Source of the DNA: Holophagaceae bacterium
GTDB lineage: Bacteria; Acidobacteriota; Holophagae; Holophagales; Holophagaceae
DNA: 44,708 nucleotides
Direction of reading: 5' to 3'
Assembly: GCA_025357545.1 (NCBI GenBank)
Contig: JANXPB010000093.1
Location: 1-44,708, forward strand
The notes under the pieces are model-generated. The model was given only the letters and a program-made list of their open reading frames with translations, was not told the origin of the DNA and ran no database searches. Below, piece by piece: positions 2,426 through 2,756 of the stretch (positions within the stretch are counted from its first letter, which is position 1; each line of letters begins with the position of its first letter). The position numbers and the translations under genes were made by a program.

Positions 2426-2475
2426 GGCCCTGGCGCTCCGGGTTCAATTCCGTCTCCACCAACACGAAGGGGCCC
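2426..2475 (+). repeat. 50-bp direct repeat copy 1, tRNA-Phe 3'-tail derived
   Basis: ggccctggcgctccgggttcaattccgtctccaccaacacgaaggggccc. 49/50 identical to 2611-2660 by eye. Confidence 0.9.
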
Positions 2476-2610
2476 CGGCTCTTTTGAACCGAGTGACTCA
2501 AGGGCGGACGGAATTCCTTCGGTCGGCGCTCCCGCGCCTCCCTACGGCCGCCCAGGCGCTAAGGCCGCCTCACTTGGGGAACACTGCGCGTCCCCCGGCG
2601 CTCGTTGCGC

Positions 2611-2660
2611 GGCCCTAGCGCTCCGGGTTCAATTCCGTCTCCACCAACACGAAGGGGCCC
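2611..2660 (+). repeat. 50-bp direct repeat copy 2, tRNA-Phe 3'-tail derived
   Basis: ggccctagcgctccgggttcaattccgtctccaccaacacgaaggggccc. Single g/a difference from copy 1. Confidence 0.9.
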
Positions 2661-2683
2661 AAAAAGGGGCCCCTTCGTGTTGG
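2644..2683 (-). terminator. 17-bp perfect inverted repeat immediately 3' of tRNA-Phe, candidate terminator/processing hairpin
   Basis: ccaacacgaaggggccc / aaaaag / gggccccttcgtgttgg. The right arm overlaps the encoded CCA end of the tRNA. There is no downstream T-run, so a terminator role is inferred. Confidence 0.55.
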
Positions 2684-2756
2684 TGCCTGGAGACGGAATT
2701 GAACCGCCGACACATGGATTTTCAATCCATTGCTCTACCAACTGAGCTACCCAGGC
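2681..2756 (-). tRNA. tRNA-Phe (anticodon GAA), CCA encoded
   Basis: Minus strand GCCTGGG-TA-GCTC-AGTTGGTA-GAGC-A-ATGGA-TTGAAAA-TCCAT-GTGTC-GGCGG-TTCAATT-CCGTC-TCCAGGC-A-CCA folds as a full cloverleaf. Confidence 0.97.

What the first reader, a model, noticed from the sequence alone, without database searches (positions are those of the whole stretch)
2426..2660. tRNA-Phe 3'-tail-derived 50-bp direct repeats next to tRNA-Phe
Two 50-bp copies, 49/50 identical and 185 bp apart, contain GGTTCAATTCCGTCTCCA-CCA-ACACGAAGGGGCCC. The functional tRNA-Phe on the minus strand has GGTTCAATTCCGTCTCCAGGCACCA-ACACGAAGGGGCCCC. Both copies therefore look like the tRNA T-arm/acceptor end plus its 3' flank with the same 4-nt loss of GGCA. 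Possible origins are integration scars at a tRNA 3' end, a small mobilizable repeat family spreading as tRNA tails, or leftovers of a decayed tRNA array. The shared 4-nt deletion means the copies arose from each other rather than independently.
Basis: partly seen in the sequence, partly recalled or inferred. Interest (0 to 1): 0.6.

Follow-up and report, generated by a model that had tools for sequence, protein, structure and literature searches.

The report
tRNA-linked repeats with host-copied ends
The two repeats beside this tRNA gene are edges of a small folded DNA element, found behind many tRNA genes and the tmRNA gene in this bacterial family, whose two ends match the tail of whichever gene it sits behind, which makes testable the old question of how such tRNA-linked repeats arise and move.

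Summary
In detail: two 50-bp copies, 49/50 identical, 185 bp apart, beside tRNA-Phe, in inverted orientation to it. They are boundaries of a tandem array: one complete ~136-bp element (2507-2642, minus strand) and one truncated copy. A covariance model built from relatives finds the family in 50 of 93 genomes of the class, all in Holophagaceae, with up to 11 copies per genome. Of 129 copies examined, 110 lie on the same strand 3' of a tRNA or tmRNA gene (Ser, Phe, Gln, Gly, His, Asn, Glu, Met, ssrA); for the other 19 no gene was found nearby. The left arm is the reverse complement of that gene's tail from T54; the right arm copies the tail from position 57 (z about 16 against shuffled pairing). 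Cores changed host kind at least 15 times, and the 36-pair fold covaries strongly. The layout equals the E. coli tyrT repeats (RtT), a kind known as tRNA-linked repeats (TLRs; PMC8144298), but Rfam's RtT model does not reach these elements. Verdict: a new, multi-host, apparently mobile TLR-like family with host-matched ends. The copying mechanism is inferred; template switching is favoured.

The parts
2681..2756 (-). host gene, tRNA-Phe(GAA), with encoded CCA; tail TTCAATTCCGTCTCCAGGCACCA
   Evidence: ARAGORN; sequence
2642..2685 (-). long hairpin between the tRNA 3' end and the element (arms 2642-2660 and 2667-2685, loop of six)
   Evidence: inverted repeat I5; the hairpin is kept with compensating changes in relatives
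2626..2642 (-). left arm of copy 1: reverse complement of the tRNA tail
   Evidence: inverted repeat I8; family-wide register
2507..2642 (-). complete element, copy 1 (left arm, folded core, right arm)
   Evidence: R1 124.5 bits and R2 104.1 bits; this copy is one of the sequences the models were built from
2507..2515 (-). right arm of copy 1: direct copy of tRNA positions 57-65 (AATTCCGTC); the acceptor part is not present in this copy
   Evidence: sequence
2476..2506 (-). stretch between copy 1 and copy 2, not recognised as tail
   Evidence: sequence
2426..2475 (-). copy 2, truncated: hairpin arm, left arm and the first bases of the core
   Evidence: direct repeat D1

Best explanation
The repeats are the left boundaries of a tandem pair of non-coding elements behind tRNA-Phe. 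The element belongs to a Holophagaceae family that works like the tRNA-linked repeats (TLRs) of E. coli. Each element is [inverted host tail from T54]-[folded core]-[direct host tail from position 57], in fixed orientation 3' of a tRNA or tmRNA gene. SHOWN: the layout, the fixed polarity, the host-matched ends, the sharp junctions inside the universal T-loop, cores shared between different host genes, tandem copies, and patchy presence. INFERRED: the core moves as DNA and takes its arms from each new host. The favoured route is replication template switching: synthesis folds back at the hairpin behind the gene, copies the tail in reverse through GGANTYGAA, switches at that universal T-loop word to another element's core, and returns to the host tail at RANTCC. 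Later template switching and slippage keep the arms identical to the tRNA, and recombination between tail copies makes tandem arrays. No RNA function is needed, and none was tested. My odds: TLR-like family with host-matched ends 0.9; movement of cores between genes 0.85; template switching as the main route 0.4.
For: 110 of 129 copies lie on the same strand 3' of a tRNA or tmRNA gene; nearly all first copies start 34-48 nt after it. Fixed-register match to the own host over 86 elements: right arm 8.41/9 (shuffled 6.48), left arm 11.29/12 (shuffled 9.49), z about 16. Junctions are sharp: left 99% at position 54 and 5% at 53; right 93% at 57 and 3% at 56. 35 of 110 cores have their nearest relative at another host kind, up to 96% identity; the core tree needs at least 15 changes of host kind, with tRNA-His elements inside the tRNA-Phe clade at 98/98 support. 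Fold: 92.6% of cells paired against 73.6% shuffled, 155 double-changed cells against 45. PMC8144298 documents TLRs in E. coli; PMC8794818 shows that template switching can create and maintain hairpins.
Against: No insertion was seen as an event: the genomes are one per species, so no strain pair with and without an element was compared. No moving enzyme or mechanism was observed. Covariation could also come from an RNA function. Arms could be corrected after insertion rather than copied at it. The core tree has only 122 columns and many open forks.
Confidence: 0.6

Rival explanations
1. A conventional non-autonomous transposable element or recombinase cassette cuts at the T-loop (between 56 and 57), and the ends converge on the host sequence later by gene conversion or template switching.
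For: Sharp junctions in the T-loop; patchy, multi-copy spread; strict orientation would fit an asymmetric target site.
Against: No ends shared by all copies apart from the T-loop words; no gene inside; Y1 transposase (PF01797) is absent from copy-rich genomes G068, G085 and G042. A cassette that brought a foreign tail would break the host tRNA at insertion. Other recombinase families were not tested for co-occurrence.
Confidence: 0.2
2. The element is a functional RNA gene or 3' trailer (like the E. coli rrn TLR RNAs), kept by selection. The arms pair with each other or with the tRNA and so must match it.
For: Strong covariation; conserved unpaired stretches in the alignment; three E. coli TLRs are transcribed and bind Hfq and CsrA (PMC8144298).
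Against: A hairpin lies between gene and element; 54 of 86 have a T-rich stretch by my loose count. Predicted read-through RNA pairs the tRNA tail with the left arm (mean probability 0.92) and loses the acceptor stem, which should harm the tRNA; this is a thermodynamic prediction of an unmodified RNA and ignores folding order. Presence is patchy. No expression data were available.
Confidence: 0.17
3. The repeats are scars of genomic islands that integrated at the tRNA 3' end.
For: Islands do use these tRNA genes: in L249 and L250 the tRNA 5' half is replaced by foreign DNA with a phage integrase next to it.
Against: The displaced 3' half keeps its element behind it, so the islands are separate. 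Scars have no conserved fold and no inverted tail.
Confidence: 0.03

Closest known systems
tRNA-linked repeats (TLRs) of E. coli K-12 (22 copies at ten loci, as summarised in PMC8144298)
   Same: Sits directly behind a stable RNA gene; its 3' end repeats that gene's 3' end; one to several tandem copies.
   Different: Another phylum, another core sequence, many more host genes including tmRNA, and an inverted left arm that the E. coli rrnB repeat does not clearly show.
RtT RNA (Rfam RF00391), the tyrT-tyrV repeats of E. coli and Klebsiella
   Same: Inverted tail, folded core, direct tail from about position 58, tandem units of 175-178 bp. R2 ranks the three repeats after tyrV first in a 1.8-kb stretch, 16.6-17.7 bits.
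   Different: RtT's model gives no match over the gathering score in 77 Holophagaceae genomes and none to these elements at E up to 1 or 5. The R2 scores are weak, so common descent is not shown.
REP/REPIN elements with RAYT (Y1) transposases
   Same: Short palindromic, multi-copy, intergenic.
   Different: No dependence on Y1 transposase; fixed place behind RNA genes; ends vary with the host.
Rickettsia palindromic elements and other small bacterial mobile repeats (review PMC2229807)
   Same: Small folded repeats; RPEs also occur in RNA genes.
   Different: Those are inserted inside genes and are recognised by a shared sequence; here the arms are the host's own tail.
Attachment sites of tRNA-targeting integrative islands
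   Same: Direct duplication of a tRNA 3' end.
   Different: No genes, about 140 bp, with an added inverted copy and a conserved folded core.

Membership tests
tRNA-linked repeats (TLR) | located directly downstream of a tRNA or rRNA gene | tested here: met
   110 of 129 copies, same strand; no rRNA host was found
tRNA-linked repeats (TLR) | last 18-19 bp identical to the 3' end of the upstream gene | tested here: inconclusive
   46 of 86 elements carry the acceptor-strand copy, mostly on to CCA; the rest, including the window copy, match only about 9 nt
tRNA-linked repeats (TLR) | core sequence shared with E. coli TLRs | tested here: inconclusive
   R2 finds the tyrV repeats at 17 bits with E 3e-4 in 1.8 kb, but unrelated pattern-selected loci reach 18.9 bits
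tRNA-linked repeats (TLR) | transcribed, processed, binds Hfq or CsrA (shown for three rrn copies) | not testable with these tools
   no expression data
RtT (RF00391) | score at or above the gathering score of 45 bits | tested here: not met
   0 of 77 family genomes over the cutoff; no match on the elements
REP/RAYT system | Y1 transposase in genomes that carry the repeats | tested here: not met
   13 of 77 genomes have one; copy-rich G068, G085 and G042 have none
integrative island at tRNA | integrase gene between the tail copies | tested here: not met
   the element is about 136 bp without a gene; islands in L249 and L250 lie on the other side of the tail

The most novel reading that the evidence does not exclude
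A mobile element with no ends of its own: a folded core that spreads between stable RNA genes and copies its two arms from each new host gene at insertion, using the universal T-loop as its switch point. The same mode might explain the E. coli tRNA-linked repeats and the repeated 3' end of nuoD in Geothrix.
Probability: 0.35. Interest if true: 0.85.

Novelty: new variant of a known kind. Interest (0 to 1): 0.62.

Why it matters
PMC8144298 says TLRs were first described in 1978 and had no known function before its study of the rrn copies; its introduction does not explain why each carries its host gene's tail. A family with over a hundred copies at many host genes, with sharp junctions and cores that changed host, turns that into a question that strain comparison and bench work in cultured Geothrix can answer. 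If the fold is kept by a DNA process, it is also a warning that strong covariation alone does not prove an RNA function.

Tried and rejected
Decayed tRNA array: rejected, no tRNA 5' halves in the units. Island scar: rejected. RAYT/REP: no co-occurrence with Y1 transposase. Known Rfam RNA: no credible family over the element at E up to 1 or 5; the weak matches are tRNA-derived or far below cutoff. Spread beyond the family: R2 in 396 Acidobacteriota genomes gave one weak hit outside it (G202), inside protein-coding sequence, an ATP synthase beta subunit by my reading, so chance. The 18-base pattern hits in other phyla and in viral contigs carry no convincing element. Plasmids: no match to the Ser-type core. 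A first batch ARAGORN run over many loci missed most tRNAs and was replaced by one-sequence linear runs. A first, sliding version of the end-matching test separated own from other hosts less well and was replaced by the fixed-register test. E. coli proM: no tail copy. Other E. coli TLR loci were not surveyed; leuV was fetched but not analysed. Literature searches for Holophagaceae repeats and for 'tRNA-linked repeats' up to 2013 gave nothing of use.

Full report
OBSERVATION. The two 50-bp copies are real: 2426-2475 and 2611-2660, 49/50 identical, 185 bp apart. They lie beside tRNA-Phe(GAA) at 2681-2756, minus strand. The shared 18-mer occurs three times in the genome, all here. The copies are inverted with respect to the tRNA, so the nearer copy, the hairpin behind the gene and the tRNA tail form one long near-palindrome.

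WHAT IT IS. A DNA search of relatives found the same arrangement behind tRNA-Phe in other species, and there the flanking arms changed together with the tRNA. Nine elements gave a covariance model, R1. A second model, R2, from 25 elements at several host genes has 36 base pairs, 26 of them with changes on both sides. Against shuffling, 92.6% of cells pair (73.6% shuffled) and 155 cells carry double changes (45 shuffled); sliding the partners destroys both. The structure was derived from these same sequences, so the comparison with slid versions leans in its favour, and related sequences inflate the shuffle comparison.

DISTRIBUTION. R2 finds the family in 50 of 93 genomes of the class, all in one family, with up to 11 matches per genome. 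Record titles name Holophagaceae and Geothrix; contig lengths agree (G051:C5 and Geothrix rubra NZ_BSDD01000005.1 are both 372,486 bases), so f1 is Holophagaceae by inference. Outside this family one weak hit appeared in 396 Acidobacteriota genomes, inside coding sequence. The own genome has two elements: the window's, and one behind tRNA-Met at C181:12197-12310.

POSITION. Of 129 copies tabulated, 110 have a tRNA or tmRNA gene upstream on the same strand. Nearly all first copies start 34-48 nt after the gene, and second copies lie about 200 nt further on. Hosts: Ser (four isoacceptors), Phe, Gln, Gly, His, Asn, Glu, Met and tmRNA. The 19 without a gene found include contig edges and displaced tRNA 3' halves; I read only some of them by eye. 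The loci were chosen by the model, which contains the arms, but the model was not told to look next to tRNA genes.

ENDS. In fixed register over 86 elements the right arm matches its own host at 8.41 of 9 positions (57-65) against 6.48 when hosts are shuffled, and the left arm at 11.29 of 12 (54-65) against 9.49, z about 16 for both. The 86 are not independent, since many are related or share a host gene. An earlier sliding version of the test gave a weaker separation. The match ends abruptly: left arm 99% at 54 and 5% at 53; right arm 93% at 57 and 3% at 56. 46 of 86 right arms continue through the acceptor strand, mostly to CCA.

MOVEMENT. For 35 of 110 elements the nearest core sits at another host gene kind, 33 of these in another genome, up to 96% identity. 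Most of these switches are among Ser isoacceptors, whose tails are similar. The core tree needs at least 15 changes of host amino-acid kind (37 of isoacceptor); it has few columns, so single forks are uncertain. The clearest case is in the window's own genus: two tRNA-His elements inside the tRNA-Phe clade with 98/98 support. L062 has arms matched to tRNA-His; in L116 they have decayed.

MECHANISM. Shown: the points above. Inferred: arms are taken from the host, most simply by template switching at the hairpin and at the universal T-loop words; PMC8794818 shows that template switching can create and maintain hairpins. Against a purely RNA role: a hairpin separates gene and element, and read-through RNA is predicted to trap the tRNA tail, which would be harmful unless rare. 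Against a conventional transposon: no gene, no shared ends, no Y1 transposase in copy-rich genomes.

COMPARISON. The E. coli tyrT repeats have the same layout. PMC8144298 describes this kind as tRNA-linked repeats, whose last 18-19 bp equal the end of the upstream gene. I found that paper late, after the analysis, so the TLR comparison rests on tyrT, rrnB and proM only. rrnB has the direct tail but no clear inverted arm. The Holophagaceae family works like a TLR; membership by sequence is unproven. An RtT-type element with matching Ser ends also occurs behind tRNA-Ser(CGA) in another Acidobacteriota family, below Rfam's cutoff (L248).

CAVEATS. R1 and R2 were built with the window copy in them, so its own score is not independent evidence. 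Novelty rests on Rfam 15 and an open-access paper library; Rudd 1999 and Egan and Landy 1978, the primary TLR papers, were not read, so parts of the arm layout may already be described there.

Noticed in passing
L237-L241 (G042, G044, G051, G054, G060): Behind nuoD (product ending LGAMNIIAGELDR by my reading) the gene's 3' end is repeated, three times in L241, with an RtT-like core between; that core matches Klebsiella RtT at 82% over 64 nt.
   Followed up: partly
L248 (G432:C1:23201-23350): An RtT-like element (30.3 bits, below cutoff) behind tRNA-Ser(CGA) in another Acidobacteriota family, with a perfect 57-bp repeat of tail and flank and a matching inverted arm.
   Followed up: partly
G000:C181:12197-12310 (L150): A second, divergent element in the window's own genome, behind tRNA-Met, with a tail copy at its right end.
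   Followed up: partly
L083/L249 (G084:C26) and L084/L250 (G016:C168): Integrase-coded islands have replaced the 5' half of tRNA-Ser(GGA) and of a tRNA read as Glu, leaving the 3' half with its element.
   Followed up: partly
L086 906-1081 (G044): The Ser(GCT) element carries an extra RtT-like insert in its second stem: an element nested in an element.
   Followed up: no
L247 (Klebsiella plasmid p3): Rfam's Aggregatibacter sRNA 22 (RF02902) matches the Klebsiella RtT repeats at 28 bits, below its cutoff of 39.8, which hints that other catalogued sRNAs may be TLR-type repeats.
   Followed up: no
NC_000913 rrnB end (L253): The E. coli rrnB repeat has the direct 5S tail but no clear inverted arm, so E. 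coli TLRs are not uniform in layout.
   Followed up: partly
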